From contig NZ_MZMO01000001.1 in the NCBI RefSeq assembly GCF_002240565.1, positions 2,108,001 through 2,172,000 of the forward strand: a stretch of 64,000 nt of DNA, read 5' to 3'. Below, one piece after another: positions 44,279 through 59,644 of the stretch. The first letter of the stretch is position 1. Each line of letters starts with the position of its first letter. Both the position numbers and the translations under genes were made by a program. Origin of the DNA: Clavibacter michiganensis subsp. insidiosus. GTDB lineage: Bacteria > Actinomycetota > Actinomycetes > Actinomycetales > Microbacteriaceae. The notes under the pieces were generated by a model that was not told where the DNA came from, did no database searches, and saw only the letters and a program-made list of their open reading frames with translations.

Positions 44279-44291
44279 GACGCCCCGTGTC

Positions 44292-45625: not shown

Positions 45626-46881
45626 ACCGACGCCTCCCTGCCCACAGGCGACGAAGCCAGCGGCGTCAGCAGCCCGAGCCCCAGTACCACGACGAGAGCC
45701 GCCCCGGTCGGATACAGCACTGCCGCGAACCCCCACTGCTCGCAGGCGGCGGTCAGCACCACCGCGCCGAGCGGCGCCAGGCACGTGGTGACCGTCCAGA
45801 AGGCCGCGGTCACCCTCCCGATCAGTCGGGGCGGAGTCACCTGCTGACGCAGGCTCATCGAGCAGACACCGCCGAGCGTGCTGCCCAGCCCGAAGGCGAG
45901 GCCGACGAGGGCGACAGCGACCGCGTGATGAGCGAGAGGAAGCAGCCCGACCGAGAGCGCCACGAGCAGGAACCCCCCGAACCAGCAGCGCGCGAAGCCG
46001 AACCGGCGGTGGAGCGGACCCGCGCCCACCGCGGCGCCCAGCGAGCCGACCGCGGCCACCGCGAAGACGATGCCGACGACCCAGGACGGGCTCCGCACCG
46101 AGTCCTTGAGCCAGAAGACCAGAAGGTCGTCGGCCGAGACGGTGACGAGGGTGAACAGCGTGAGGAGCACCATTAGCCAGCGCAGGGTCGGGTTCTCCCA
46201 CAGGAAGACGACCCCTTCCCTGAAGCCGGCGAACCAGCCACCAGGGCGAACGGCGTAGGGGTCGTGCTCGGCGTCGGACGCCTCCGACGGCGGCGGGCGC
46301 AGCAGCCACACCGAGAGCGCGGACACCGCGAAGGTGAGCGCGTCGACGCCGATGGCGTTGGCCGGGCCGGTCAGGGCCGCCAACGCTCCGGCCGCGGCCG
46401 GTCCGACGAGGTAGGCCACCGAGTTCGACGTCTCCAGCCTGCCGTTGGCGTCGACGATCTGGTTCTGGGGCACCAGCGCCTGCACCATCGACACGTGGGC
46501 GACTTGGAAGGTCAGGCCGAGCCCGGACCCGATCGCCGCGCACACGTAGACCAGCCACAGCTGCGGCTCGATCCACCACACGACAGGCACCGCTCCGAAG
46601 ACGACGAGACGGCCCAGGTCGCAGCCGATCATCAGCCGCCTGCGGTCGACGCGGTCGATGAGTGGTCCCACCAGGACACCGGCGACGAGGCGGACCGCAC
46701 CGTAGACCGCCGAGACCGCACCCATCTGGAACAGCGATCCGGTCAGCTCGAGCACCAGGAGCGGCAGGGCCAGGCTGCCGAACGCGTTGCCGAACGCCGA
46801 GAGACCCTGCCCGGCCCAGTAGAGGTTGAAGGCCGCGTTCCGATGCAGCGGGACCTCAGGGTCGCGACCGACGACCGGCAT
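45622..46881 (-). CDS. MFS efflux transporter (MFS_3 / macrolide-efflux type)
   Basis: 419 residues with about 11-12 hydrophobic segments. RNAAFNLYWAGQGLSAFGNAF at the N-terminus and GPLIDRVDRRRLMIGCDLGR between helices 2 and 3 are typical of the MFS_3 group of drug/macrolide exporters. Starts at MPVVGRDPEV. Its stop overlaps the ATG of the ACP-domain gene, giving an MFS-ACP-GIY-YIG operon. An export role for a secondary metabolite is possible but unproven. Confidence 0.85.
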   Translation of the reverse strand: MPVVGRDPEVPLHRNAAFNLYWAGQGLSAFGNAFGSLALPLLVLELTGSLFQMGAVSAVYGAVRLVAGVLVGPLIDRVDRRRLMIGCDLGRLVVFGAVPVVWWIEPQLWLVYVCAAIGSGLGLTFQVAHVSMVQALVPQNQIVDANGRLETSNSVAYLVGPAAAGALAALTGPANAIGVDALTFAVSALSVWLLRPPPSEASDAEHDPYAVRPGGWFAGFREGVVFLWENPTLRWLMVLLTLFTLVTVSADDLLVFWLKDSVRSPSWVVGIVFAVAAVGSLGAAVGAGPLHRRFGFARCWFGGFLLVALSVGLLPLAHHAVAVALVGLAFGLGSTLGGVCSMSLRQQVTPPRLIGRVTAAFWTVTTCLAPLGAVVLTAACEQWGFAAVLYPTGAALVVVLGLGLLTPLASSPVGREASV

Positions 46882-47004
46882 CAGCGGACCCCTCGTGCGA
46901 TGTGCGAGAGCGCGTCGACGAACCGCGCCACGAGGTGGGACGCGCGGCCGAATCCGTGACGCGCTTTCGACTTCGCGCTGATCACCACGCACATGCGATC
47001 ACGC

Positions 47005-47310
47005 ATAACCACGATGCCATCCTTCACAACGCGTCACTTGACCTGGTGCGCGCTGCGGAAGTCAGCGCGCTCGTGTCTGCCCGTCGAGCGTCCGACGGCA
47101 CGATCTGCCCGCGGATCTTGCTGCGACGCTGGGCTTCTGCATCGCGGCCCACGGGGGAATGCCGTCAAGCTACCGTTCTCGCTGACAGACCGGGCAGAAG
47201 TGACTCGAGCGGTTCATGAACGCCTCGCGGACGATCGACGTGCCGCAGCGGCGGCACGGCTTCCCCTGCTGCCCGCAGGCGTTGAGCGAGTGCGAGAAGT
47301 AGCCGGACTC
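47005..47310. repeat. left copy of a ~300-bp diverged direct repeat (mutM 3' region)
   Basis: Matches 58565-58870 in the same orientation without large gaps: ACCACGATGCC starts both, TCAAGCTACCGT follows at the same distance, and AAGTGACTCGAGCG and TTCATGAAC are shared inside mutM. Identity looks like about 70-80% by eye. The two copies enclose an 11.5-kb accessory segment. Confidence 0.75.
47170..47310 (-). pseudogene. mutM 3'-end fragment
   Basis: Encodes only the C-terminal ~46 residues of formamidopyrimidine-DNA glycosylase: [20 protein letters not shown], then [24 protein letters not shown] zinc finger. It differs from the intact gene at 58736-59644 at about one residue in four or five, so it is not a recent duplicate. 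Upstream of SGYF the similarity stops abruptly. Confidence 0.85.
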
Positions 47311-48339
47311 CACACGGCAGGTACGAGAACAACGATTCCCGTAGGAGAAGCGTTTTCGCTGGTCGACGGCTTTTCCCCGTCTGGAAAACGCCACCGTGCC
47401 GGGCACGTCCTGAGTAGCCTGGTACGACCACTCCACGTCAGACTTCGCAGCCACGCGATCGATGGGGGGGGAAGCCGCCCGCCAGGCCGCCGTCTGCGCT
47501 TTCACCGAGGTCACCCGGATGATCCGTCGGCATGGCGTACCCCGCGCGCTGGCTCGTGGTTCACCACTCAGCCACGATCGCCAGTGTTCAGACGAGGGCT
47601 CTGATGCACTTCGGATCGGTGATGGAGCGGCCCGTCCTACGCCGATGATCCAGCTCCCCCGGGCCTTCTCCGCTCGGCGTCGCGATCGCGCAGATGGTTC
47701 TGGAGGACCTCGCCGATGACGGTGACCTGTTCCACGGTCAACGGCGGCGCGGCCTCATGGATCTTCCGGACGTGCTCCTCGTGCGCAGCCGAGTCGAAGG
47801 CATAGTCCAGGTCGGAGACGCGGATCAGGGTCTTGATCACCGGGCGCATCACCGTGCAGATCGCCGAGCATGGGCAAGTGTGGAGGGCCCGGCGCCGGAC
47901 GCCCGGGGCCGCGGTCCTCGGCGTAGGCGGTCGAGAGCACCGGAGCAAGTACTACTTCCAGGGAGGACGAGAACCCACCGGCTGGCCGGGTTCCTCGGGC
48001 GAGTGGTCTGACACCGCCCGAGAGGACTGGCCGCCGGATTGGGATGTGGACGACGGCACGCGCCTCTCAGCGGCCACTCGCGCTTGGAGCCCATGCCCGC
48101 GCGGCGGTCGGCGAGAAACGGATGCCGTACGCCGGGATGACGCGACGCGTTCCGCCTCAGGCCGAGGACTCGCCCGCCCGCTCCCGCTGCACCCGCGTCC
48201 GGTGCGTGTCGTACTCGACGTCGTGCAGGCCGGGCGGCAGCGGCGCGATGAGCAGCCCCCGGCTCGCGAGTCGCATCCGGGTGCTGCGCGTGAGCTGCTC
48301 CCCGTGCGCGGTGTCCATCGTGTGGCGAGCACCGGGGTG
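47311..48339. other. mosaic of remnants without clear intact gene
   Basis: Contains a run of eight G at 47463-47471, a 70-codon frame (47637-47849, minus) and a short remnant near 48180-48330 that reads MRLASRGLLIAPLPPGLHD then VEYDTHRTRVQRERAGE on the minus strand, which looks like the end of an unidentified gene. Nothing else can be supported. Confidence 0.45.
47637..47849 (-). CDS. small hypothetical protein
   Basis: 70 residues: [20 protein letters not shown], then [20 protein letters not shown]. Composition is protein-like ([19 protein letters not shown] helix), but no family is recognised and it could be the end of a larger broken gene. Lies in a region of gene debris. Confidence 0.35.
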
Positions 48340-48611
48340 TGGACGACCGGTCCGACAGCCCTCGCACCCCTTCCTGACGGAACCGGGCCACCCAGCGATG
48401 CGCGCGCCGCCGCGAGACGCCGAGCTCACGCGCGACCCGCCGACGATCCTCCACCACGCGCCGCACGAGTAGAAGCCTCCCGCTGGACTGTCAGATGAGC
48501 GCCACCGTGGGACATCGAGGCCTCCTGGCGAGGGTTGAACTATGCAGCTCCATCAGGCCAGGAGGCCTTTCCACACGCCTCGAACCGTCACCAACTTCAC
48601 GGTGGAGTGCA
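48340..48611 (-). mobile_element. IS481-family relic (one end)
   Basis: The 28-bp terminal repeat 48584-48611 matches that of the intact IS at 20 of 28 positions, and GCTAG follows it directly, as at the intact copy. Inside, the transposase start (ATGTCCCAC near 48515) and the helix-turn-helix region (VARELGVSRRRAHRWVARF, GLSDRSS) are present but frameshifted, and similarity ends near 48340. The other end is missing. Confidence 0.8.
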
Positions 48612-48612
48612 G

Positions 48613-49128
48613 CTAGAGCCGCTCTCCAGCCGCGCTCGCGTCGTCGCCAAGCGCTAGTAAGAGCTTCCGCAGGAGATCGCTGAGGTGCTGCTGCTCGTCC
48701 CGATCGAGGGAGGCGAGCAGATCGCGTTCGTTCTCGACGTGGCTCACGAGGGCATCGTTGACCACTGAGAGGCCCTGCCTAGACAGCGTCACGATAACGC
48801 TACGACGATTCGCGGGGTCAGTCTCGCGCGTCACGAACCCCTTGTCGACCAGCCGGTTCAAGCGGTTCGTGATGGCGCCGGAGCTGACCATGGTACTGGC
48901 CAGGACGTCTCCCACGGTCATGCGGTGCGGTGCGCCAGCCCTCCTGAGCGCGGCAAGCAGGTCGAACTCGCCGGGCAGGAGGTCGTGCTGGTTGAGGGTG
49001 GCAGCGATGTGCCGATCCAGGATCGCGGCGGATCGGCTGATGCGGCCGATCACCGCCATGGGGCTCACGTCGACATCCGGGCGCTCCTGTGCCCACTGAT
49101 CAAGTACTCGATCGACTGCGTCGGGCAT
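48613..49128 (-). CDS. MarR-family transcriptional regulator
   Basis: 171 residues. The winged helix-turn-helix covers residues ~45-130: HDLLPGEFDLLAALRRAG, MTVGDVLASTMVSSGAITNR, then LVDKGFVTRETDPANRRSVI with the wing arginines. Dimerisation helices flank it. The ATG at 49128 has AAGGAG six bases upstream; a GTG 15 bases earlier would put the start on that site. It is divergent from the biosynthetic operon and most likely its ligand-responsive repressor. Confidence 0.9.
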   Translation of the reverse strand: MPDAVDRVLDQWAQERPDVDVSPMAVIGRISRSAAILDRHIAATLNQHDLLPGEFDLLAALRRAGAPHRMTVGDVLASTMVSSGAITNRLNRLVDKGFVTRETDPANRRSVIVTLSRQGLSVVNDALVSHVENERDLLASLDRDEQQHLSDLLRKLLLALGDDASAAGERL

Positions 49129-49141
49129 GACCGACTCCTTC

Positions 49142-49203
49142 ACGTTGAATTGTTTGACTCAGCCTCGGCCTCGGCATACACTCCTCAACGTTAAACAGTG
49201 TTG
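49142..49203 (+). promoter_or_regulatory. promoter of the indigoidine-type operon with candidate MarR sites
   Basis: TTGACT (49154-49159), 17-base spacer, TACACT (49177-49182): a good sigma-70-type promoter pointing into the operon. Two AT-rich motifs, ACGTTGAATTGTTTGA upstream and TCAACGTTAAACA just after the -10, lie within the 100-base divergent gap and could bind the MarR dimer. The rest of the window's non-coding DNA is far more GC-rich. Confidence 0.6.
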
Positions 49204-49230
49204 CGCCGCGACGTTCGGAGGGCTGGGGCT

Positions 49231-50190
49231 GTGACGAACGATGAGGCGCACCGCAGGCGGTCCTCTTTGCCAATGGAGCTTAACGAGGAGGTCGCCCTCA
49301 CGCTCGCAGATGGCGCTGCAGTCGTCGCCCTCGAATCCAATGTTGTCGCTCAGGGGCTGCCGTACCCACGGAACCACGAGACAGCGCTACAGGTCGAGGA
49401 CGCTGCACGAGGCGCAGGAGCCGTCCCCGCGACCATCGCTGTCATCGACGGGGTTGTGCGAGTCGGCTTGAGCCGGGACGAGCTTGAGCGCATCGCACTG
49501 TCGCCATCCCTGCCGAAGCTCACCACCCGGGACATCGGCGCGTGCGTGGCACGCCGAGGAACCGGAGCCACGACCATCGCGGCCACGATGGCGATCGCGG
49601 ACCTGGCAGGCATCGCAGTCGTCGCCTCCGCTGGGCTCGGGGGTGTCCACCGAGACGCGAGCGAGAGCTTCGACATCTCCGCTGACCTCCCTCAGCTGAC
49701 TCGATCCAAGGTGCTCGTCGTCTCCGCTGGAGCCAAGAAGATCTTGGACGTACCGGCGACGCTGGAGTACCTCGAGACCGCCGGTGTGCCCGTGGTCGGC
49801 TACCGATGCGATGACTTCCCCGCCTTCTACTGCGTCTCGAGCGGGTCCCCGGTTCCACACCGCTCGGACAGCCTCACCGAGGTAGCACAAGCAGCTCTTG
49901 CTCATTGGTCGCTGGGGAACGCCGGGGCGGTCCTCGTCGCCCACCCCATATCGCCGTCGCACGCGCTTGAGTCGGCAGAGGTCGATGAAGCCATAGAGTC
50001 GGCGCTCCTTCGCGCTCGTGCCGAGGGCATCAGCGGGCAGCGTGTCACGCGATACCTGCTTGACGCGGTCAACGATGCGACCCACGGACGCGCGCAGGCC
50101 GCTAACGCCGCAGTCCTCATCAGCACCACAGAGATCGGCGCTCAAGCGGCGGTCGCATATTCGGCCGTGATCAGGAGAGCTCTTACATGA
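49231..50190 (+). CDS. PsuG-family C-glycosidase/synthase (IndA/MinB-like)
   Basis: 319 residues. PsuG enzymes reversibly split or form the C-C bond between ribose 5-phosphate and a uracil-like base. Family blocks: VVALESNVVAQGLPYPRNHE, TRDIGACVARRGTGATTIAA, SAGLGGVHRDASESFDISAD and VPVVGYRCDDFPAFY. Homologues (IndA, MinB) stand beside indigoidine synthetases, where C-ribosylation of a pyridinedione has been proposed. No PsuK kinase is present, so a catabolic role is unlikely. The GTG has GGAGGG eight bases upstream. First gene of the operon; overlaps the next start (ATGA). Confidence 0.88.
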   Translation: MTNDEAHRRRSSLPMELNEEVALTLADGAAVVALESNVVAQGLPYPRNHETALQVEDAARGAGAVPATIAVIDGVVRVGLSRDELERIALSPSLPKLTTRDIGACVARRGTGATTIAATMAIADLAGIAVVASAGLGGVHRDASESFDISADLPQLTRSKVLVVSAGAKKILDVPATLEYLETAGVPVVGYRCDDFPAFYCVSSGSPVPHRSDSLTEVAQAALAHWSLGNAGAVLVAHPISPSHALESAEVDEAIESALLRARAEGISGQRVTRYLLDAVNDATHGRAQAANAAVLISTTEIGAQAAVAYSAVIRRALT

Positions 50191-50879
50191 AAAGCCTCAA
50201 CGCAGCGCTGTTCGACCTGGACGGGACGTTGTTGGACACGCCACCGGCTATCGCGGCTGCGCTCAAGTCCGCCGTCGCCGAAGTCACGGGCGAGAACGTC
50301 GCCCTGCAAGATGTCGTCCAACTCGTGGGACGTCCTCTACCGATCTTGTGCGGACGGCTCGTAGGTCGTCATGAGGATGACCCGATGACTCTTGCCGTGG
50401 TACGGGCATACCAGCACCGTTATCGACAAGACATCGTCCCAAGCGCGCAGCAGTTGATCTTTCCCGGTGTCCTCGACGGTCTCGACGCCCTCCGGGCCGA
50501 GGGGCTCTCCTTTGCCATCGTCACCAGCAAAGCGCACCACGCGGCGGAATCAATACTCGACGCGGCGGGTCTGCTCGACCGCTTCGACGTCGTCATCGGC
50601 GCGGACGACGTGAAGAACCCCAAGCCCGCCGGGGATGCGGGACTGAAGGCTCTGGACATGCTGTCCGTCACACCCGAGGCCGCGATCGTGGTCGGTGATA
50701 CTGCCGACGACATACGAATGGCCGGCGCCGTCCCCATGCGTTCCATCGGGGTGACGTACGGATCGACGATGAAAGAGGCGATGACCGCTCTCCGTCCCAC
50801 ACTGGTCGTCGAGGACTTCCCGTCGGCGGTGAGTGCGATCAGGCACGTGATGCTCAGCAGAGAAGAGATGCTCTCATGA
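50187..50879 (+). CDS. HAD-superfamily phosphatase (IndB/MinC-N-like)
   Basis: 230 residues. HAD motifs: ALFDLDGTLLDT (nucleophile Asp), AIVTSKAHHA (Ser/Thr), KNPKPAGDAGLKAL (Lys) and VVGDTADDIRMAGA (acids). The cap is phosphoglycolate-phosphatase-like. In the related indigoidine and minimycin clusters a HAD phosphatase dephosphorylates a C-nucleotide and is thought to protect the producer. Here it is a single domain, without the extra C-terminal domain I remember for MinC. Both ends overlap the neighbours by four bases. Confidence 0.88.
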   Translation: MKSLNAALFDLDGTLLDTPPAIAAALKSAVAEVTGENVALQDVVQLVGRPLPILCGRLVGRHEDDPMTLAVVRAYQHRYRQDIVPSAQQLIFPGVLDGLDALRAEGLSFAIVTSKAHHAAESILDAAGLLDRFDVVIGADDVKNPKPAGDAGLKALDMLSVTPEAAIVVGDTADDIRMAGAVPMRSIGVTYGSTMKEAMTALRPTLVVEDFPSAVSAIRHVMLSREEMLS

Positions 50880-51568
50880 CCAGTGCTCTCACCGAAACGC
50901 AGACAGACGAAGTCGTCGTTATGGACGGGCGTGTTCACCAGCTCCCCCGCACCGACGCGCTGCTCGCTCTTCACGCCACGGCCCGCAATGCAGAGGCCAG
51001 TCATCGAGACTTCGTCCTGTCCACGCAACAGGTCATGCGGCTCCTTCTAGAGGAGTCCCTCGGACACTTGACTCATGTCGACGAGGCGCCGATCACTCCG
51101 ATCGGTGGAGCGTTCCAGGGTCGTCGTCGCGCACAGCAGCAGGTGATGGCCGTCTCGGTTCCGAGCGCCGGGGACGCACTCGAAGCCGAGCTCCGCTCGA
51201 TAGTCCCCGACGCGCGTATCGGGAAGATCCTGATTCAGCGGGACCCCGATCTGAAGACCCCGACGCTCCACTGGAGCAAACTGCCAGACGGCATCGCGGG
51301 AAAGGAAGTGCTGCTTCTCGACCCCATGATGGCGACCGCGAGCACTGTGAAGCTGGCGATCACCGTGCTGGCCGACTCCGGCGTGAAGCCCGCAGACATC
51401 GTCGTCGTGAACTTCCTGACCTGTCCTGAGGCACTCGAGAAGCTGTTCGCCGAACATCCCGAGGTCCGCGTCGTCACCAGCTTCATCGACGATCGCCTCA
51501 CCGAGCAAGCCTTCCTGTGGCCGGGGATCGGCGACTTCGGTGACAGGTACTACGGGACCTTCCGATGA
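50876..51568 (+). CDS. uracil phosphoribosyltransferase-like protein (MinD-like)
   Basis: 230 residues. UPRT fold: VLLLDPMMATASTVKLAITVL corresponds to the PRPP loop (usual D-P-M-L-A-T-G-G), then FLTCPEALEKLFAEHPEV, then SFIDDRLTEQAFLWPGIGDF(GDRYYGT). In this copy the two loop glycines are replaced by A-S. UPRT makes UMP from uracil and PRPP; the minimycin-cluster homologue MinD is reported to aid self-resistance by enlarging the UMP pool. It overlaps its neighbours by four bases on both sides, so its place in the operon is firm. Confidence 0.85.
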   Translation: MTSALTETQTDEVVVMDGRVHQLPRTDALLALHATARNAEASHRDFVLSTQQVMRLLLEESLGHLTHVDEAPITPIGGAFQGRRRAQQQVMAVSVPSAGDALEAELRSIVPDARIGKILIQRDPDLKTPTLHWSKLPDGIAGKEVLLLDPMMATASTVKLAITVLADSGVKPADIVVVNFLTCPEALEKLFAEHPEVRVVTSFIDDRLTEQAFLWPGIGDFGDRYYGTFR

Positions 51569-52482
51569 CGTCACCTGGGCGGTCGGTGCGCATTCCCGGC
51601 AGCGCCGGGATCGCAGCAGCTGCAGCGGTCGCGCCCATCGTGTGGGGAAGCACGTACGTAGTGACGACTGAGCTACTGCCTCCCGGCCACTCGATGACCG
51701 CCAGCGTGCTGCGCGCGCTGCCCGCCGGCCTGCTGCTGCTCGCCATCCGATCGGGCCTCCCGCCACGGGGATGGCGCGTACGCACGGCTGTGCTCGGCAT
51801 GCTCAACATCGGGTTCTTCTTCCCGCTCCTGTTCATCGCCGCTTATCGGCTTCCCGGGGGTCTTGCCTCCGTCGTGGGGGCTCTCCAGCCGATCCTCATC
51901 ATCGGCCTGACTCTCGTGCTCCGATGGGGTCGGCCATCGAACGCCCATTTGCTCGGGGGCCTCGTCGCGCTGATCGGCGTGTCGCTCGTCTCCGTCAACG
52001 AGAACGCTTCCTTCGATGCGTTGGGTTTTGTAGCCGCCGTGCTCGGGACGGTGTCCATGGCGTCGGGGATCCTCCTAACCCGGCGCTGGGGAACGCCACC
52101 GAACACTCATCCGCTGAACTCCACCGCGTGGCAGCTGATAGTCGGCGGCGTCGCGATCATCCCCCTCATCCCGATCTTCGACAGCGGACCTTGGGAGCCG
52201 ACCGCTGCTGGCGTCGCCGGCTACGCGTGGTTGACCCTCGTGGGCGGGGCACTTGCGTACAGCCTCTGGTTCCGCGGCGCTCGAGCTCTGCCCTCCACCG
52301 GAATCGCTCTGCTCGGAGTCCTCAGCCCTGTGACTGCAGCGACTCTGGGCTGGGTCCTTCTGGGGCAGGAACTGTCTCCACTGCAGGTGGTCGGATTCGT
52401 CATCGCTCTGGGCGGTTCTCTGGGAGGTCAGCTCACACCCGCATACAAGACGCGTCCTGTCTTGACGCAAGCCACCTCATGA
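51565..52482 (+). CDS. EamA/DMT-family transporter
   Basis: 305 residues, ten hydrophobic segments in two EamA repeats (VAPIVWGSTYVVTTELLP at the start; LALLG...VLSPVTAATLGWVLLGQ in the second half). Such proteins export metabolites such as amino acids, purines or secondary products. In this operon it is the obvious exporter of the product (the role given to MinT in the minimycin cluster). ATG overlaps the previous stop; 25 bases separate it from the NRPS. Confidence 0.9.
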   Translation: MTSPGRSVRIPGSAGIAAAAAVAPIVWGSTYVVTTELLPPGHSMTASVLRALPAGLLLLAIRSGLPPRGWRVRTAVLGMLNIGFFFPLLFIAAYRLPGGLASVVGALQPILIIGLTLVLRWGRPSNAHLLGGLVALIGVSLVSVNENASFDALGFVAAVLGTVSMASGILLTRRWGTPPNTHPLNSTAWQLIVGGVAIIPLIPIFDSGPWEPTAAGVAGYAWLTLVGGALAYSLWFRGARALPSTGIALLGVLSPVTAATLGWVLLGQELSPLQVVGFVIALGGSLGGQLTPAYKTRPVLTQATS

Positions 52483-52507
52483 ACCTCGACGTCGGCAAGG
52501 AAATGTG

Positions 52508-55500
52508 ATGAACGCAAACGAGTCCTTTGATTCGCACGATGAAGTCGAATCACTGCCGGTGATGCTCAAAGCTGCTGTTGCAGCTGATCCCGGAAAAGCC
52601 GCGGTGGTCGCAGAGAACACCATGATGACCTACTCGCAGCTGTGGGCAAGGGCGACGGCCCAGGCTGAACACCTCCGCCGGGTGGGAGTGCGGCCTGGCG
52701 ACTACGTGGGGTTGTACCTAGAACCAGGCGAACGGCTCCTGGTGGCTGTGTGGGCCGTGCTCCTCGCTGATGCGGCGTACGTGCCGCTGGCTGTGGACTA
52801 CCCATCGGAGCGCATCCGCTACATGATCGCCCAGTCCGCTGTTGCCCACATCATCACGGATGACGTCTCCGCGTCGCCCGCTCGGAAGCTCACCCCGGAT
52901 GGCGTGCACGTGCACATCGCAGGTGAGGGCACCCCGACGCTTGCGGGCGCCTACGACCCCGACATGTCGGGTTCGGCGTATGTCATATTCACCTCTGGCT
53001 CGACCGGCAAGCCGAAGGGGGTCGTGATACCGCATTCGGCGATCACGCATCAGATGCGGTGGCTCGCGCAGGAGATGGCGCTCGGGCAGGCGCGGATACT
53101 GCTCAAGACCCCGACGAGCTTCGACGCCGCACAATGGGAGCTCCTCGCGAACGCAGTCGGCGGAACCGTCATCGTCGGAGAAGCGGGTATCCACCGCGAT
53201 CCCTCTCGTATCCGAGCACTCGTCGATTCTCAGCACGCCACTCACCTCCAATGTGTTCCCACGCTCTGGAGGGCTCTGTGCCGAGAGCCGGAATTCGCGA
53301 GATGCGAATCGTTGACACACGTCTTCAGTGGAGGCGAAGCCCTGACTCCCGGGGATGCAAAAGACATCATGCAGACGCTTCCTCATGCGCGTCTCTTCAA
53401 TCTCTATGGTCCGACGGAGACGACCATCAACGCCACCTCGCATCGAGTCGGCGTCGATGATGTCGATCCTCCAGATCCCGTGGTGACCATCGGGCGCCCG
53501 ATACCGGGGTGCTCCGTTCACATCCTCGACGCGAAGCGGCAGCCCGTCGCTCTCGGCGACCATGGAGAGCTCGCCATCGGTGGTCCTCAGGTGGCATCCG
53601 GCTACCTCAACGATGCCGCGAGGACCGAGGAGCGGTTCGTCACGATCGAGCGCGAGGGAGTCGCCACGCGCGTCTACCTGACGGGGGACATCGTCTCCCG
53701 CGACTCGGCCGGAGCGCTGCACTTCCACGGGCGTACCGACGACCAGGTAAAGGTGAACGGGCACCGAGTCGAGACCGAGGAGGTGCGGCTCGCGGTCGAG
53801 CAGCACCATTGGGTGCGTTCCGCCGCCGTCGTGCCGTGGAAGGACCCTCGGGACGGCGTGGCGCGTCTGGCGGCGTTCGTCGAGCTCGACCCGCACGAGG
53901 CCGCGCTCATGGACGCTGACCGCGCAGGGCAGCATCACCGCTCGAAGAAGGGGCACGAACAAGTCCTCGCACAGCTCGCAGTGCTTTCCCGGGACGGCGA
54001 CCGGCCGGACGACGTCGTCCTGGCCAACGCGGAGGGCACGCCCGAGCAGCGACGGTTCGCGTTTGGACGCAAGACCTACCGCTTCTACGAGGGCGGACAG
54101 TTGACGGTGGAGGACATCACACGAGCCGTCGACACGTCACAGAAGCCTGTTCCGGTGGCGCCGCTTGCAGCGCTGGACGTCCATGTGCTCGCGGAGCTCC
54201 TCCGCTGGTTCGGCCCGTTCACCAGCCCTGAGAGGTTGCTCCCCAAATACGCCTACGCTTCACCGGGAGCGCTGAACGCCACCACGATCTACCTCGAGGC
54301 CTGCGGCATCGAGGGCCTGCTGGATGGGATGTACGAGTACCGCCACGCCTCGCATGGCTTGAGGAGGGTCGGCCCCGTTGAGAGCGAGTTGCCCGGTCCT
54401 CTGCGTTTCCACTTCGTCGGAAGTCGCCGCGCCATCGATTCCGTATACGCAACGAACATCGACGAAGTGCTGCACTTCGAGGGCGGACACATGGCAGGTC
54501 TCCTCGACCATGCTGCGGCTCAGATCGGTTACTCGGCACAACTCCAACCGTCGACCCAGGACGCTCGCATCGTCGCCGCGGAGCACGTCTGCACCGCGGT
54601 GATCGACCTCGGCCCCGCAGCGCCGGCTGGGGATGACCTGCCGGTCCGGGTGACCGTTCAAATGCACGACAGCGTCAAGGACGCACGATCCGGCACCTAC
54701 GACGTCGGCCCCGCGGGACTCCGACGGCTCAGTGCAGACATCATCGAGCGACGGCACGTCATCGCGATCAACCAGGAGACCTACGACCGGTCGAGCTTCG
54801 GTGTCGGACTCTCGGTTCCGAGTACCGCGGGATGGCGTGGATTCGTAGCCCTAGGGAGGGCGCTGCAACGGCTGCAGATGAACTCGGAGGGGATCGGGCT
54901 GATGTCGGCCGGTTACTCCTCGCTCACCGGGCGCGATCTCCCCTCGGCTCTGCAATATGCGAACATCGTCGGAGACGCCTCGATCATGTACTTCGCGGTC
55001 GCCGGGCCGGTGTCCGAGGAGCAGATCCGCTCGACCGGCATGCACGAGGACTCTGTCCACACTCGTGGTCCCGAAGAGATCCTTCGGGACGATCTTCGCC
55101 GCACCCTGCCCTACTACATGGTTCCCTCGCGCATCACCATCGTCGACGAGATACCCGTCTCCAGCAGCGGCAAGCACGACAGGGCGGCCCTCGTCTCCGT
55201 CGTTGAGGCATCCGTCGCACCTCATGCTGTTGTGACACCACCGAAGACCGACCTCGAGCGCAGCCTCCTGGACCTCTGGAATGAGACGCTCAGGTCGGAT
55301 CATCGGTCCGTGACCGCGGACTTCTTCGACCTGGGCGGAAACTCACTCGACGCAGTCCAGCTCATCAACCGCATAAATCGCGTCCTCGGGGTTCTGTTGC
55401 CCGTCCAGACGGTATTCGAACGCCCGACGGTACGCGGTCTGGCGGAAGTGCTGTCTTCGAGGTCATTGGCGATGTCCCGTCTCATCAAGCTCGCCGATGG

Positions 55501-56269
55501 TCCCGGTCCCGTATGCGTCGTCTGGCCCGGGCTCGGCGGCTACCCGATGAACCTGAGGGCGTTCGCTGAGCATCTCTCCTCGAAGTTCACTGTCTACGCT
55601 GTTCAGACCCACGGACTCAACGTCGGTGAAGTCCCCTACACGACCCTGCGCGAGATGATCGATCGTGACATCATGCTCATCGACGGTGCGCTGGGCGATC
55701 AAGACCTGGCGATCGCCGGGTACTCATTCGGCGCGAGGGTGGCGACCGAGGTAGCGGCGACGTTGACCGCCAGGGGCCGAGCCATCAAACAGGTAATCCT
55801 CTTGGCGCCCGGATCGCCGTTCGTGCCCGGTCTGCCTCTGAGCTCTGGTGACGGATTCGGTGACTCGTATTTCAGGCACATGGCATATTCGGTGTTCGTA
55901 GGACGACTTCCTGACGATGAGGCTGCCGCTCAGCTAGCCTCCATGACCGACCAGGAGTCTTTTCTCGAGGCGTTGACTCTCTGGCGTCCTGGGTTCGACC
56001 TGGAGCTGGCGGCAAGGATCCTCGCGGTTGCATCAACCACATTCGGATTCCGCGGCGACACCGTCACGGACGTCGACGGCCTTCTGGCCAAGATGCACGT
56101 CTTCGCGGCGCTCGGGGACACTCCGTCCTTCTTGCGATCGAATGAAGTGCCCCTCGAAGAACATGGGCAGCTGCGTCGTCTCTCCGTCGATCACTACGCC
56201 ATCCTGCGTGATCCCGCGGTAGAAACCGTGGTGGGCATGTTGGAAGCTCGCCAGGTTCGGGTGGGCTGA
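52508..56269 (+). CDS. single-module NRPS, A-Ox-T-TE (indigoidine synthetase-like)
   Basis: 1253 residues. Adenylation domain ~20-450 and its C-terminal subdomain near 830-900: SAYVIFTSGSTGKPKG (~158), LFNLYGPTETT (~298), SSSGKHDRAAL (~885). The segment TSFDAAQWELL gives D-A-W at the first code positions, in line with glutamine activation as I remember it for indigoidine synthetases. A nitroreductase-like oxidase is inserted within the A domain at ~520-830 (KTYRFYEGG, LPKYAYASPGALNATTIYLE). Carrier domain ~910-985 with FFDLGGNSLDA; thioesterase ~1000-1253 with GYSFGAR (nucleophile) and VDHYAIL (His). This order is that of BpsA/IndC, which cyclise and oxidise two Gln to indigoidine. AAGGAA precedes the ATG. 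Confidence 0.93.
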   Translation: MNANESFDSHDEVESLPVMLKAAVAADPGKAAVVAENTMMTYSQLWARATAQAEHLRRVGVRPGDYVGLYLEPGERLLVAVWAVLLADAAYVPLAVDYPSERIRYMIAQSAVAHIITDDVSASPARKLTPDGVHVHIAGEGTPTLAGAYDPDMSGSAYVIFTSGSTGKPKGVVIPHSAITHQMRWLAQEMALGQARILLKTPTSFDAAQWELLANAVGGTVIVGEAGIHRDPSRIRALVDSQHATHLQCVPTLWRALCREPEFARCESLTHVFSGGEALTPGDAKDIMQTLPHARLFNLYGPTETTINATSHRVGVDDVDPPDPVVTIGRPIPGCSVHILDAKRQPVALGDHGELAIGGPQVASGYLNDAARTEERFVTIEREGVATRVYLTGDIVSRDSAGALHFHGRTDDQVKVNGHRVETEEVRLAVEQHHWVRSAAVVPWKDPRDGVARLAAFVELDPHEAALMDADRAGQHHRSKKGHEQVLAQLAVLSRDGDRPDDVVLANAEGTPEQRRFAFGRKTYRFYEGGQLTVEDITRAVDTSQKPVPVAPLAALDVHVLAELLRWFGPFTSPERLLPKYAYASPGALNATTIYLEACGIEGLLDGMYEYRHASHGLRRVGPVESELPGPLRFHFVGSRRAIDSVYATNIDEVLHFEGGHMAGLLDHAAAQIGYSAQLQPSTQDARIVAAEHVCTAVIDLGPAAPAGDDLPVRVTVQMHDSVKDARSGTYDVGPAGLRRLSADIIERRHVIAINQETYDRSSFGVGLSVPSTAGWRGFVALGRALQRLQMNSEGIGLMSAGYSSLTGRDLPSALQYANIVGDASIMYFAVAGPVSEEQIRSTGMHEDSVHTRGPEEILRDDLRRTLPYYMVPSRITIVDEIPVSSSGKHDRAALVSVVEASVAPHAVVTPPKTDLERSLLDLWNETLRSDHRSVTADFFDLGGNSLDAVQLINRINRVLGVLLPVQTVFERPTVRGLAEVLSSRSLAMSRLIKLADGPGPVCVVWPGLGGYPMNLRAFAEHLSSKFTVYAVQTHGLNVGEVPYTTLREMIDRDIMLIDGALGDQDLAIAGYSFGARVATEVAATLTARGRAIKQVILLAPGSPFVPGLPLSSGDGFGDSYFRHMAYSVFVGRLPDDEAAAQLASMTDQESFLEALTLWRPGFDLELAARILAVASTTFGFRGDTVTDVDGLLAKMHVFAALGDTPSFLRSNEVPLEEHGQLRRLSVDHYAILRDPAVETVVGMLEARQVRVG

Positions 56270-56409
56270 TGCCTCATCTCAAGGTGTGGCACTATGCGCC
56301 CGAGTTGACTCCGGAGAAGAAGCAACTTCTCGTGGATGCCTTCGAGGCTGTCACCGTCGAGATCCTCGCTTCTAGGCGCGGACATGGCCGGTGTGGAGGT
56401 TTTCGGTGA
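56269..56409 (+). CDS. tautomerase-like mini-protein overlapping the PPTase gene
   Basis: 46 residues starting at an ATG overlapping the NRPS stop (TGATG). It begins MPHLKVWHYAPELTPEKKQL, with Pro next to the initiator Met as in 4-oxalocrotonate tautomerases, whose N-terminal Pro is catalytic, followed by the helix LLVDAFEAVTVEIL. After residue ~34 the sequence (SRRGHGRCGGFR) loses coding character where the PPTase frame takes over, so this may be a truncated relic. Confidence 0.4.
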   Translation: MPHLKVWHYAPELTPEKKQLLVDAFEAVTVEILASRRGHGRCGGFR

Positions 56410-56971
56410 TCTGACGGACTTGGAGCACTTCGCCTCCGAAGAGGACCTGCTCGTGGGCGCATCTGCGGCCCGGTTGGCGGAGTTCCGTACCGCACGGTCA
56501 TGCGCTCGACAAGCGCTGCAACTGCTCGGGTCGCCGGCATCGAACATCTTGAGGGGCCATGACCGCGCCCCGATCTGGTCGGCGGGCGTCACCGGCAGCA
56601 TTACGCACCGTGATGGATACCGGGCGGCAGTCGTGGCGAAGAAGAGCCGGGTGTCGGCTATCGTAATCGATGCTGAACAGGATCTGCCCCTCCCCGATGG
56701 AGTGGCCGACATGACTTTGACCGCTCCGGACTGGGCGTCCGTTCGGGGCCTCACGGCGAACCACAATTGGGATCGCCTGCTCTTCAGCGCCAAAGAGGCT
56801 GTCTTCATGCTTGCATCAGGACTGGGAGCACCTACGACGATCGACATCATACGGGTGCACACCGACGGGCAGATCGACGTGATGGCCAGAGAGGCCGGAT
56901 TCGACATAGACGCCCGGTGGGTGGAGGCACGCGGGCTTCTCGTCACGGCGGTTGCGGCTCGTACGCGTTAG
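56336..56971 (+). CDS. 4'-phosphopantetheinyl transferase, Sfp/EntD type
   Basis: 211 residues from ATG 56336, or 195 from ATG 56384. It moves phosphopantetheine from CoA to the carrier Ser of the NRPS. Motifs: EFRTARSCARQALQLLG (CoA binding), TGSITHRDGYRAAVVA, VIDAEQDLPLPDGV (Mg ligands Asp/Glu) and WDRLLFSAKEAVF. LLGADMAGVEVFGD upstream of the second Met still matches the family N-terminus, so the longer form is more likely, overlapping the mini-protein. It is the last gene of the operon. Confidence 0.9.
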   Translation: MPSRLSPSRSSLLGADMAGVEVFGDLTDLEHFASEEDLLVGASAARLAEFRTARSCARQALQLLGSPASNILRGHDRAPIWSAGVTGSITHRDGYRAAVVAKKSRVSAIVIDAEQDLPLPDGVADMTLTAPDWASVRGLTANHNWDRLLFSAKEAVFMLASGLGAPTTIDIIRVHTDGQIDVMAREAGFDIDARWVEARGLLVTAVAARTR

Positions 56972-57009
56972 TCGTTCGTGTCGAGAGGGGTCCAGTCCCG
57001 ATCACTGGT

Positions 57010-57698
57010 CTAGCGACGTCGCGACGCTTCGGACGCAGTCGCCAGGCCCATGTCTGCGTTGCGCGCGTCAAACGCGAGCCACCGGCTTGCCTGGCTCCGG
57101 TCGGCAAGCCGTGACCCGACCGCGGCGTTCCCGCTGGCTGCGGCGGTAACGGCTACTTCGCCCCAGCCGCCCTCGCTTGCGGCGAGTCGAAGAGTGAGCT
57201 GTCCCCAGGTCGGATTCGCGTAGACGACCTGGGCGTCCGTAAGACTGTCAATCCGTTCCCCAGAGAGGTCGCCTCGCACTTCTTCGCGCGAAGCGAAACG
57301 CGCTTCCCGGTACTCCTGTCGCCGTTCGTCCACTTCCGTCCGCAGCGCTCCTTAGCGTGGGACTTCAATGGGTGCTGGCGAACAGCGGTCAGGTAGCTGA
57401 AATCCACCGCCTCGCCATCGACGCGGCGGATCCAGATCCCGATCGGATTGGCCCCGACGAACACACCACTCGCATCGCGAGCTCGGTCGATGAAGAACTC
57501 CTTCACGCCCGGGCCCGTCTTCTCAGCGTGGTCCGGGTGACGTTCGAGGAGTTCGATGAGCATCCGGTGGTGGACTGGGTCGGAGATCGCGACCCCGACC
57601 GAGTAGCCGGAGTCGCGCAGAATAGCGCGGAACGCTGCCTCGGCCGCCGAGCGCGTCGGCCAGCTGAACGTCCCGAGAAGTATAGGGATACTGGCCAT
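57010..57698 (-). pseudogene. DUF3223 (DCL-like) protein gene, frameshifted
   Basis: The first ~115 codons (57698 down to ~57355) read MASIPILLGTFSWPTRSAAE, SDPVHHRMLIELLERHP, FFIDRARDASGVFVG, AVDFSYLTAV: the DUF3223/DCL domain. Then the frame shifts at about 57352-57375; in the next frame the expected continuation ALRTEVDERRQEYREARFAS, DLSGERIDSLTDAQVVYANP and GQLTLRLAASEGG runs to 57010. A single-base indel (or sequencing error) would rejoin them. These proteins occur in phage and defence settings and have unknown function. Confidence 0.75.
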
Positions 57699-57810
57699 GA
57701 CCATCACCCCATGGCATCACCACCGTGATCACAGCGAACGATCGGGAAGACCGCGGCGTGAAGGCACCCCGCCCCTCCCCGGAGCACATGTCCTGCCGTA
57801 ACCTTGCCGC

Positions 57811-58518
57811 ATGAGTCTTTCCTACGACGACGTTCGGAATCTCCCGCTGTCCGATTTGAGCCTGAACCTGCTCAGATCGTTGGGCTCCGACCCGAACTTC
57901 AACAACTTGATACAGGGGTTCAAGCAACGAGGCGGCTACGACCAGCCCACGCCGTCCGACCTCGACGCGATGCTGGCTCGACTGTCGGATGCGTGGGCAT
58001 GGCTCGAGTCGCATGCTCTGATCGGCCCCTCATCACGAAACCCCCAAAGCAACAATTGGAGCCGAGTCACGACCACGGGGACGGCCCTGCTCGATGACCC
58101 CAACGCGCTCCCGAAGGTCTGGGCGGAAGATCGCCTCGCCGGTGGGCTCCACCCGGCCCTGTCGTCAGCGCGATCGAATTTCGCACTCGGCGACTTCGAG
58201 ACGGCTTCCTTCGCGGCGATGAAAGCCGTCGAGGTGGAGGTGCGCCGCGTCGCTGGTCTGCCGAATGAACTCCTCGGAGTGGCCCTGATGAGGAAGGCCT
58301 TGAGCCCGAAGGATGGCGTTCTTCGCGACCCCGGCGCAGAGGGGGGGGGACAGCAGGCCATCGCCGACCTATTCGCCGGCGCGATCGGCGCCTACAAGAA
58401 CCCGGCCAGTCATCGCACCGTTCGGTTCGACGACGCAGTCGAGGCTGCGGAAGTGATCCAGCTCGCCGATCTCCTTCTCCGCATCGTGCAACGGGCTGAG
58501 GCGCGACTGAATCTGTAA
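57811..58518 (+). CDS. TIGR02391 (Ymh) family protein
   Basis: 235 residues. The C-terminal ~125 residues match the TIGR02391/Hypoth_Ymh pattern: ALGDFETASFAAMKAVEVEV, then GVALMRKALSPKDGVL, then IADLFAGAIGAYKNPASHRT, a HEPN-like helical domain often found near restriction and abortive-infection genes. The N-terminal ~100 residues are helical and contain PTPSDLDAMLARLSDAWAWL. A run of nine G (58341-58349) lies in the coding sequence. It faces away from the DUF3223 gene across a 112-base gap. Confidence 0.78.
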   Translation: MSLSYDDVRNLPLSDLSLNLLRSLGSDPNFNNLIQGFKQRGGYDQPTPSDLDAMLARLSDAWAWLESHALIGPSSRNPQSNNWSRVTTTGTALLDDPNALPKVWAEDRLAGGLHPALSSARSNFALGDFETASFAAMKAVEVEVRRVAGLPNELLGVALMRKALSPKDGVLRDPGAEGGGQQAIADLFAGAIGAYKNPASHRTVRFDDAVEAAEVIQLADLLLRIVQRAEARLNL

Positions 58519-58564
58519 ATCACTCACGAGTTGGTGCTGATCAGCGTATCGATGCAGCCCCGCG

Positions 58565-58870
58565 CGACCACGATGCCGTCCTTCATGACCTAGCACTCGA
58601 CGAGGTGGTCGCCGCGGGACTCAGTGCACTCGCACCTAGCCGCCTCGCGGTTCGACGGGACAACCTGTCCGAGACTCTTGTTGCGATAGCCAACTTCTAT
58701 ACCAATGTCCACTCTCGAAGAAGATCAAGCTACCGTCACCGCTGACACACCGGGCAAAAGTGACTCGAGCGATTCATGAACTTCTCACGTGCGATCGGTG
58801 TCCCGCAGCGTTTGCAGGGATGCCCAGCGAGCCCATAGACATTCAGGCGTCGGGAAAAATAGCCGGACGC
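58565..58870. repeat. right copy of the ~300-bp diverged direct repeat
   Basis: Covers the 170 bases downstream of mutM and its last ~45 codons; partner of 47005-47310. On the minus strand both copies contain a V-K-D-G-I-V-V-like stretch just outside mutM (KDGIVVARG here, KDGIVVMRD in the left copy), perhaps a relic of a small gene. Confidence 0.75.
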
Positions 58871-59644
58871 GCCGTTGACGTTGACGTACTGCGCGTCGAA
58901 GCTCGTGCCGCCCTCCGCGAGGGCGCGAGCCAGCACGGTCCGCACCTCCGCGAGCAGCCGCAGGGCGCGCCCCCGGCCGAGCTGGTCCGTGGGATGCGCG
59001 TAGTGGATCCGCGCGGCCCACAGCACCTCATCCGCGTAGATGTTGCCGATGCCGCTCACGAGCGTCTGGTCGAGCAGCGCGCGCTTGATCCCCGTGCGTC
59101 GCCGCGCGAGCCGGTCGAGCAGCAGCTCGTCGTCGAACGCCGGGTCGAGCGGATCCCGCGCGATGTGGGCCACCTGCGTCGGCACGAGCGCGGCGGCGGA
59201 TCCGCGACCGCCCGCGTTCCCGTCGGGCGTCGCGACGAGGCGGTCGACGGCCATCGAGCCGAAGATCCGCTGGTCCACGAAGGCGACGACGAGCTCGCCC
59301 TGCACCGGGTGCTCGATGCCCATGCGGATCCGCAGCAGCCCGTCGGGGTCGGAGCCGGGCTCGCGGAGGAGCACCTGCCCGCTCATGCCGAGGTGCGTGA
59401 CGAGGGCGCGGGGTCCGGTCGTGTCGCGCCCGGCGTCGGGCTCGAGCGGCAGCCAGAGGAACTTGCCGCGCCGGACGGCGGAGGTGAACACACGGCCGAC
59501 CAGCAGGTCGACGAACGCGCCCTCGAGCGGGTCATGCCGCTTGAGCGACCGCGCGTCGAGGATCTCCACGCCGGTGATGCGGGCACCGGCGACCGCGGGC
59601 TCGAGGCCGGCGCGGACGACCTCGACCTCGGGGAGCTCGGGCAC
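58736..59644 (-). CDS. mutM: formamidopyrimidine-DNA glycosylase
   Basis: 302 residues from a GTG (P-E-L-P-E-V-E follows the initiator; Pro2 is the catalytic nucleophile and Glu3 the acid). It excises 8-oxoguanine and FapyG. Also visible: SAVRRGKFLWLPL (catalytic Lys), GIGNIYADEVLW (helix-two-turn-helix) and the zinc finger CKRCGTP...FCPVC. Starts 6 bases after rnc. A diverged copy of its last ~46 codons is at 47170-47310. Confidence 0.97.
   Translation of the reverse strand: MPELPEVEVVRAGLEPAVAGARITGVEILDARSLKRHDPLEGAFVDLLVGRVFTSAVRRGKFLWLPLEPDAGRDTTGPRALVTHLGMSGQVLLREPGSDPDGLLRIRMGIEHPVQGELVVAFVDQRIFGSMAVDRLVATPDGNAGGRGSAAALVPTQVAHIARDPLDPAFDDELLLDRLARRRTGIKRALLDQTLVSGIGNIYADEVLWAARIHYAHPTDQLGRGRALRLLAEVRTVLARALAEGGTSFDAQYVNVNGASGYFSRRLNVYGLAGHPCKRCGTPIAREKFMNRSSHFCPVCQR

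What the first reader, a model, noticed from the sequence alone, without database searches (positions are those of the whole stretch)
49128..56971. MarR-controlled indigoidine / C-nucleoside type biosynthetic operon
Seen: an A-Ox-T-TE single-module NRPS in one tightly overlapping operon with PsuG-like, HAD, UPRT-like and EamA genes, plus a PPTase, under a divergent MarR gene. Established: A-Ox-T-TE enzymes (BpsA, IndC) make indigoidine; PsuG- and HAD-type IndA/IndB accompany IndC; in Streptomyces the min cluster with the same kinds of genes makes the C-nucleoside minimycin, with phosphatase, UPRT and transporter in self-resistance. Inference: this Clavibacter-like cluster could make a pyridinedione C-nucleoside as well as, or instead of, blue pigment. 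No DUF4243-type oxygenase (used for oxazine-ring formation in related pathways) is visible here, so the product may be a ring-unexpanded variant that has not been described.
Basis: partly seen in the sequence, partly recalled or inferred. Interest (0 to 1): 0.85.

Follow-up and report, generated by a model that had tools for sequence, protein, structure and literature searches.

The report
Blue-pigment cluster with ribose-attaching genes
A rare, horizontally acquired gene set in an alfalfa-wilt bacterium makes the building block of a known blue pigment and carries genes that probably attach a ribose to it, which would link an old group of soluble blue pigments to a set of genes that can be tested.

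Summary
Observation confirmed. Window 48613-56971 holds a MarR gene divergent from PsuG-like, AlnB-like HAD, UPRT, EamA, a 1254-aa A-Ox-T-TE synthetase and a PPTase. A truncated tautomerase-like ORF (56269-56409) was missed. No DUF4243 gene was found in the genome. The host is most likely Clavibacter insidiosus, reported to make indigoidine. The cluster sits in a ~11.6-kb low-GC insertion at the mutM 3' end, absent there from 17 of 17 congeners.

It is not a minimycin cluster (no oxygenase; tautomerase broken), nor plain bpsA or Dickeya indABC: a cluster-specific second UPRT rides with PsuG (29 of 35 PsuG+ loci, 0 of 45 PsuG- loci). The same gene order without DUF4243 occurs in Pseudarthrobacter polychromogenes, Curtobacterium pusillum and an Acidimicrobiales MAG. 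Pseudarthrobacter is a source of 'indochrome', recalled as C-ribosylated indigoidine.

Best reading: an indochrome-type pathway. The synthetase makes the aminopyridinedione; part dimerises to indigoidine, part is C-ribosylated, dephosphorylated and exported; UPRT protects the UMP pool. The product is unproven. The truncated tautomerase and an odd UPRT motif leave 'indigoidine only' open for this strain. New variant of a known kind.

The parts
48613..49143 (-). MarR-family regulator, divergent from the operon; W..ERPD..SPM N-terminus as in PecS/MftR-type proteins (family label recalled)
   Evidence: Pfam MarR_2 48 bits; nearest solved chains 8ylh/8ylf, E 4e-38 and 2e-36; divergent MarR also in L007, L008, L012
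49154..49198 (+). divergent intergenic stretch: promoter-like TTGACT-17-TACACT (49154-49182) and an 18-mer CTCCTCAACGTTAAACAG (49181-49198) that resembles CTCATGAACGTTCAACAG at the same place in L007; possible operator, weak
   Evidence: neither beats shuffles
49273..50190 (+). PsuG-like (Indigoidine_A) C-glycosynthase/C-glycosidase, 305 aa
   Evidence: Pfam 352 bits; solved PsuG E 3e-73, segments around YeiN Glu31 and Lys166 kept; groups with NRPS-linked PsuGs; start codon
50187..50879 (+). HAD phosphatase, AlnB-like
   Evidence: Pfam HAD_2; best solved relative AlnB E 3e-34, next 1e-19
50876..51568 (+). uracil phosphoribosyltransferase of the NRPS-linked clade; departs from an otherwise invariant motif residue
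   Evidence: Pfam 190 bits; clade 100/100; motif usual in 119 of 120 homologues, the window's being the exception
51565..52482 (+). EamA (DMT) exporter
   Evidence: Pfam EamA 97 bits
52505..56269 (+). single-module NRPS A-Ox-T-TE, Gln-type code, 1254 aa
56269..56409 (+). truncated tautomerase-like ORF (46 aa), C-terminal half missing
   Evidence: 46% identity over 35 aa to the discrete tautomerase-like protein of L007, itself a weak Pfam Tautomerase hit under the cut-off
56336..56971 (+). 4'-phosphopantetheinyl transferase (start may lie further in)
   Evidence: Pfam 4PPT_N 80 bits
47182..47308 (-). displaced original 3' end of mutM (left border of the insertion)
   Evidence: 84-93% to mutM ends of 17 of 17 congeners; direct repeat with 58725-58868, 74%
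58736..59644 (-). mutM (fpg), whose 3' end is foreign (right border of the insertion)
   Evidence: Pfam; congeners match up to about 58733-58769

Best explanation
An indochrome-type pathway. (1) The PPTase-activated NRPS loads L-Gln, oxidises it in the Ox domain and releases the cyclised aminopyridinedione; part couples in air to indigoidine (established for BpsA/IndC; inferred here). (2) The PsuG-like enzyme joins ribose 5-phosphate to a ring carbon by a Lys-iminium/Mannich-like step (established for YeiN; inferred here). (3) The AlnB-like HAD removes the phosphate. (4) As DUF4243 is absent, the ring is not rearranged to the oxazine of minimycin; the C-ribosyl aminopyridinedione is exported by EamA and oxidises, alone or with unribosylated monomer, to soluble blue dyes. 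(5) UPRT keeps UMP high against the uridine-like C-nucleotide, as proposed for MinD. (6) The divergent MarR protein represses the operon. Shown: genes, order, kinship, co-occurrence, insertion. Inferred: chemistry, product, regulation. In this strain the truncated tautomerase and the UPRT motif may lower the ribosyl branch.
For: UPRT lies near the NRPS in 29 of 35 loci with PsuG and in 0 of 45 without (Fisher 3e-16; 9 independent pairs, 6-8 the same way, 0 opposite). Cluster UPRTs are one clade apart from 12 housekeeping ones (100/100) and are a second copy in 10 of 10 such genomes examined. NRPS-linked PsuGs separate from 15 Microbacteriaceae PsuGs (SH-aLRT 99) and keep the catalytic segments. 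The HAD's nearest solved relative is AlnB, partner of the C-ribosylating AlnA (one search lists AlnA; pathway role per PMC8724604, section read). The same order without DUF4243 is found in P. polychromogenes, C. pusillum and an Acidimicrobiales MAG, whose whole genomes also gave no PF14027 hit. [quoted passage not shown] MinB/MinC-N/MinD roles: PMC8724604 section 6.
Against: No metabolite data. Six of 35 PsuG+ loci lack UPRT, among them two Dickeya, a genus reported to make indigoidine. The tautomerase-like ORF is truncated, though P. polychromogenes shows none behind its NRPS either. The window's UPRT departs from a residue kept in 119 of 120 homologues. The A. antioxidans NRPS alone turns E. 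coli pellet and supernatant blue. The window's organism is listed in reviews for indigoidine. The Nocardia/Williamsia members of the same clade have DUF4243 (8 of 9 seen), so the window type may be an oxygenase-loss form. That indochrome is a C-riboside is recalled.
Confidence: 0.57

Rival explanations
1. Indigoidine only. NRPS and PPTase make the blue pigment; PsuG and HAD are accessory or clean-up enzymes, as they may be in Dickeya indABC, and UPRT is a salvage gene carried along. Sub-form: a nucleoside branch existed in the donor but has decayed in this strain.
For: Reviews list Clavibacter or Corynebacterium insidiosum as indigoidine producers; Dickeya loci have PsuG, HAD, EamA and MarR without UPRT; truncated tautomerase-like ORF; UPRT motif departure; an NRPS of this lineage alone gives blue colour in E. 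coli.
Against: A separate UPRT clade tied to PsuG across Actinomycetota, Pseudomonadota and a cyanobacterium is hard to explain as salvage; the relative-rate tests show no faster change of PsuG, HAD or UPRT in the window (12 tests over 6 genes, none under 0.05).
Confidence: 0.33
2. The cluster UPRT does not protect UMP but transfers phosphoribosyl to the uracil-like aminopyridinedione, giving an N-nucleotide as product or PsuG substrate.
For: Cluster UPRTs differ from housekeeping ones at 13 columns, 7 substitutions and 6 in an N-terminal extension.
Against: C-terminal PGIGDFGDR and the PRPP loop are largely kept and match eukaryote-type UPRTs; MinD is reported to act by raising UMP.
Confidence: 0.07
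3. Ordinary minimycin, with the oxygenase supplied from elsewhere in the genome.
For: PsuG, HAD and UPRT shared with min-type loci.
Against: No PF14027 hit in the genome; tautomerase truncated.
Confidence: 0.03

Closest known systems
Minimycin (min) cluster, Streptomyces hygroscopicus JCM 4712 (Kong 2019, not held; seen through review PMC8724604, section 6)
   Same: Gln-type NRPS, PsuG-like C-glycosynthase, HAD phosphatase, UPRT, transporter
   Different: min has a DUF4243 domain fused to the HAD and a tautomerase domain in the NRPS; the window has neither
Dickeya indABC with pecS-pecM
   Same: PsuG-like, HAD, NRPS, MarR and EamA genes (L039, L086); PecM exports indigoidine (PMC6391409, PMC12288460; passages)
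   Different: no UPRT in those loci; in the window the MarR gene is divergent from PsuG and EamA is inside the operon
BpsA/IndC-type indigoidine synthetase alone
   Same: A-Ox-T-TE enzyme with Gln-type code
   Different: 45 of 80 relatives have no PsuG and no UPRT nearby; the window has both
AlnA/AlnB of alnumycin
   Same: PsuG-like plus HAD pair; AlnB is the nearest solved relative of the HAD, AlnA is among those of PsuG
   Different: aglycone is a polyketide (recalled), no NRPS
Indochrome of Pseudarthrobacter (Arthrobacter) polychromogenes and relatives
   Same: P. polychromogenes carries the same MarR/PsuG-HAD-UPRT-EamA-NRPS-PPTase set (L008); soluble blue, indigoidine-related (C-ribosyl structure recalled)
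   Different: no genes for indochrome appeared in the listings; the window's organism is listed for indigoidine, not indochrome

Membership tests
Indigoidine synthetase (A-Ox-T-TE) | A, T and TE domains with an Ox insertion before the end of A | tested here: met
   Ox by motif and position, no Pfam model hit
Indigoidine synthetase (A-Ox-T-TE) | L-Gln specificity | tested here: met
   code DAWQFGLINK, shared by 80 of 121 aligned; by prediction only
Minimycin (min) cluster | PsuG-like, HAD, UPRT and transporter with the NRPS | tested here: met
   UPRT clade
Minimycin (min) cluster | DUF4243 domain | tested here: not met
Minimycin (min) cluster | tautomerase domain on the NRPS | tested here: not met
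   no C-terminal extension; only a truncated separate ORF
Dickeya indABC/pecSM | PsuG-like, HAD, NRPS without UPRT | tested here: not met
   UPRT present; Dickeya loci lack it
PsuG-type C-glycosidase/C-glycosynthase | fold and catalytic Glu/Lys segments | tested here: met
   residue roles from PMC7722734 passages
PsuG-type C-glycosidase/C-glycosynthase | C-C bond formation with an aminopyridinedione | not testable with these tools
   needs enzyme assay
PecS-PecM pair | PecS gene divergent from the PecM transporter gene (PMC6391409) | tested here: not met
   MarR is divergent from PsuG; EamA is fourth in the operon
PecS-PecM pair | urate/xanthine response | not testable with these tools
   sequence resembles such regulators
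Indochrome-type cluster (proposed here) | same oxygenase-free gene order as in P. polychromogenes | tested here: met
Indochrome-type cluster (proposed here) | C-ribosylated blue product | not testable with these tools
   no metabolite data; structure recalled

The most novel reading that the evidence does not exclude
The window and its relatives in Curtobacterium, Pseudarthrobacter/Arthrobacter and an Acidimicrobiales MAG carry the genes for indochrome: a min-like machinery without the oxygenase, giving a C-ribosyl aminopyridinedione that is both a uridine-like antimetabolite (hence UPRT and exporter) and the monomer of a soluble blue dye. A plant pathogen would then make a C-nucleoside besides its pigment.
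Probability: 0.45. Interest if true: 0.75.

Novelty: new variant of a known kind. Interest (0 to 1): 0.58.

Why it matters
The role of PsuG-like IndA and HAD-like IndB in indigoidine clusters is unsettled as far as I know, and none of the ten paper searches listed genes for the ribosylated (indochrome) pigments. A conserved, oxygenase-free cluster with its own UPRT gives a direct test: does PsuG turn the indigoidine monomer into a C-nucleoside? A yes would point to further C-nucleoside sources, explain why only some indigoidine clusters carry UPRT, and suggest that some 'blue pigment' producers also release antimetabolites. It would also invite a second look at the water-soluble blue pigment of Arthrobacter antioxidans, whose structure is not yet verified.

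Tried and rejected
Minimycin proper: set aside for want of a PF14027 hit in the whole genome and of the NRPS-fused tautomerase.

Pseudouridine salvage (PsuG with a kinase): the partner here is a HAD phosphatase, and PsuG groups with NRPS-linked PsuGs, not with 15 other Microbacteriaceae ones. I made no search for psuK.

Faster decay of the window's copies: Tajima relative-rate tests, 6 genes, L007 against the window with two outgroups, gave no p under 0.05 in 12 tests. The truncated tautomerase and the UPRT motif stand alone as signs of decay.

Operator and promoter: palindromes between MarR and PsuG do not beat shuffles; one promoter-like hit was found where 1.0 is expected.

Misses of my own profiles: the tautomerase profile missed the window's truncated ORF (found by reading); the PPTase profile missed the other PPTase type of L008 (seen, confirmed by Pfam); no HAD was found in 11 of 35 PsuG+ loci, not followed up. 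The DUF4243 profile, seeded with two Streptomyces sequences, may miss distant forms; it found 14. A first pattern count of the UPRT motif was unreliable and was replaced by an alignment column. Structure prediction was not used.
Full report
THE OBSERVATION. Pfam hits: MarR 48613-49143(-); Indigoidine_A (PsuG) in the ORF 49198-50190, probable start 49273; HAD 50187-50879; UPRTase 50876-51568; EamA 51565-52482; an AMP-binding/PP-binding/thioesterase protein of 1254 aa at 52505-56269; 4'-PPTase 56336-56971. Genes from PsuG to EamA overlap by 4 nt; EamA to NRPS is 22 nt. The Ox domain has no Pfam hit but fills the stretch between the A core and AMP-binding_C and carries the [RK][HQ]VIAINQ and G[LF]MS[AS]GYSS motifs of the aligned indigoidine-type synthetases. 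The A-domain code reads DAWQFGLINK, as in 80 of 121 aligned sequences (mapping recalled). The NRPS stop overlaps the ATG of a 46-codon ORF, 56269-56409; its first 35 residues are 46% identical to the 76-aa tautomerase-like protein behind the Curtobacterium NRPS, which is itself a weak Pfam Tautomerase hit under the cut-off. The C-terminal half is missing.

THE HOST AND THE INSERTION. Two plasmid stretches of the genome match Clavibacter plasmids from Medicago at 98.6-99.5% (five records); NZ_CP011044 has 47,690 bp, the size of pCI1 of C. michiganensis subsp. insidiosus R1-1 in PMC4424300 (whole text). The host is thus most likely C. insidiosus. Reviews name Clavibacter or Corynebacterium insidiosum among indigoidine producers (PMC11637871, PMC8066239, PMC10745774; passages). 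Of 299 family genomes the NRPS (E 1e-100) is in this one and one other, the Curtobacterium of L007; the six other same-genus genomes of that draw lack it. Of 396 order genomes only this one has a UPRT match at E 1e-45. GC is 62-69% in the kilobases from 47 to 59 kb and 69-79% in the flanks from 40 to 47 and 59 to 64 kb. A direct repeat of 144 nt (74%) of the mutM 3' end flanks the stretch, 11,560 nt apart. In 17 of 17 congeners the mutM end matches the left repeat (47182-47308) at 84-93%; in 16 of 17 the DNA 45-115 nt further on matches parts of the window's left flank (41.6-45.3 kb); L147 showed no left match in the 1.5 kb held. The original mutM end was displaced leftwards and a foreign end now completes mutM. 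I recognised no integrase in the ORF list of 46-60 kb; one IS481-type leader fragment lies at 47849-48466.

RELATIVES. With an Ox-domain alignment, 312 relatives were found in genome contigs and the best 80 were kept, all with record titles. Their surroundings were profiled within 8 kb. PsuG lies near the NRPS in 35 of 80; UPRT in 29 of these 35 and in 0 of the other 45 (Fisher 3e-16; 9 independent pairs on the NRPS tree, 6-8 the same way, 0 opposite, sign-test median p 0.016). The six with PsuG but no UPRT are two Dickeya, Edaphovirga, Brenneria, an Oxalobacteraceae strain and Pseudoalteromonas luteoviolacea. DUF4243 is in 12 of the 29 (7 Nocardia, Williamsia, 3 Streptomyces, Brasilonema); 17 show none, of which L015, L038 and L051 lie on contigs that end early. 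Pfam confirmed a HAD-DUF4243 fusion in the two Streptomyces tested. The window NRPS falls in a 13-row clade, all PsuG+UPRT+: window, Curtobacterium, P. polychromogenes, an Acidimicrobiales MAG and nine Nocardia/Williamsia. The first four lack DUF4243 in the locus and gave no PF14027 hit in the whole genome. That search rang in 6 of 16 genomes, the two positives (L009, L032) among them; it also rang in genomes of L016 (70 bits, with a stop inside), L057 and L082 (28-30 bits) and, under the cut-off, L041, so for those DUF4243 outside the locus is not excluded. The order in L007, L008 and L012 is MarR divergent from PsuG-HAD-UPRT-EamA-NRPS, then a tautomerase-like gene (L007, L012) and a PPTase (L007, L008).

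PROTEINS. PsuG: one copy in the genome; the segments with YeiN Glu31 and Lys166 are kept (roles from PMC7722734 passages). NRPS-linked PsuGs group apart from 15 Microbacteriaceae PsuGs (SH-aLRT 99, quick tree). Four columns separate 35 of 35 from 15 of 15 and a fifth 33 of 35 from 15 of 15; two lie in the segment before GGVHR. HAD: best solved relative AlnB, E 3e-34, next 1e-19. UPRT: in 12 genomes, the 10 with a UPRT-bearing cluster have two strong UPRTs, Dickeya (L039) and a bpsA-only Streptomyces (L017) one. Thirty cluster UPRTs form one clade against 12 housekeeping ones (100/100). The window's UPRT departs from a motif residue kept in 119 of 120 homologues and in 41 of 42 rows of the tree; one protein cluster of 3 member sequences on 6 contigs stands for it. 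MarR: nearest solved relatives share its W..ERPD..S.M start (PecS/MftR label recalled). No gene evolves detectably faster in the window than in L007 (12 tests, none under 0.05).

MECHANISM. In the min pathway MinA makes the aminopyridinedione, which couples to indigoidine or is tautomerised, C-ribosylated by MinB and converted by the two parts of MinC; MinCN, MinD and MinT form the self-resistance (PMC8724604 section 6; Kong 2019 not held). Without DUF4243 the route would stop at the C-ribosyl aminopyridinedione 5'-phosphate, which the HAD would dephosphorylate. Oxidative coupling, alone or with unribosylated monomer, would give soluble blue dyes. I recall that indochrome of Arthrobacter polychromogenes is such a ribosylated indigoidine; [quoted passage not shown] 34LCH1' in a reference list (PMC9559291; paper not held). 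A. [quoted passage not shown] its NRPS alone colours E. coli pellet and supernatant blue (PMC13405713: abstract, passages, sections 23 and 25, part 1 of 27). P0011, named A. antioxidans, is 49% identical to the window's NRPS. That result shows that an NRPS of this lineage suffices for blue colour; it neither supports nor excludes ribosylation in the native host. Tautomerases are known both fused and discrete in indigoidine clusters (PMC12766979, passages).

WHAT SPEAKS AGAINST. There is no chemistry. Dickeya, reported to make indigoidine, has PsuG and HAD at hand. The tautomerase-like ORF is truncated here, although P. polychromogenes shows none behind its NRPS. The UPRT departure may weaken self-protection. 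The clade also holds DUF4243-bearing loci. Hence 0.57 for an indochrome-type pathway and 0.33 for indigoidine alone, decay in this strain included.

LITERATURE. Ten searches: indigoidine+Clavibacter, minimycin+indigoidine+UPRT, IndA+pseudouridine, oxazinomycin/C-glycosynthase, PecS+PecM, indochrome, polychromogenes, insidiosus/blue pigment, Knackmuss/C-nucleoside, ribosyl or glycosylated indigoidine. In the titles, abstract starts and passages that I saw, none describes an oxygenase-free PsuG-UPRT indigoidine cluster or genes for indochrome. Listings were capped, and most subscription journals are not held.

Noticed in passing
window 47182-58768: Insertion of about 11.6 kb at the 3' end of mutM that swaps the gene's end for a foreign one; carries a DUF3223 ORF (57153-57707), a Hypoth_Ymh ORF (57811-58518) and an IS481-leader ORF (47849-48466); no integrase recognised.
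   Followed up: partly
window 44265-47181: Left of the displaced mutM end, a stretch with an MFS transporter (45622-46992) found no match next to mutM in most congeners (only L134 and L139 match into it), perhaps a second insertion at the same spot.
   Followed up: no
P0011 (Arthrobacter antioxidans) and PMC13405713: The paper reports no recognisable Ox domain in this NRPS; in my alignment P0011 carries the Ox motifs (VIAINQ, GLMSSGYAS) over the whole Ox stretch, so the domain is probably present but without a Pfam model.
   Followed up: partly
L016, L038, L064: PsuG+UPRT+ loci without a DUF4243 hit nearby carry an Oxidored_FMN (old yellow enzyme family) gene; perhaps another ring-tailoring branch.
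   Followed up: no
L062 (Brenneria izbisi): PsuG, HAD and DUF4243 beside the NRPS but no UPRT: the reverse combination of the window.
   Followed up: no
L057:12785-14086: A ribose-phosphate pyrophosphokinase-like gene next to PsuG in a Microbispora NRPS locus, possibly for PRPP supply.
   Followed up: no
L007:3593-4753: The Curtobacterium locus has two MarR genes in tandem, both divergent from PsuG.
   Followed up: no
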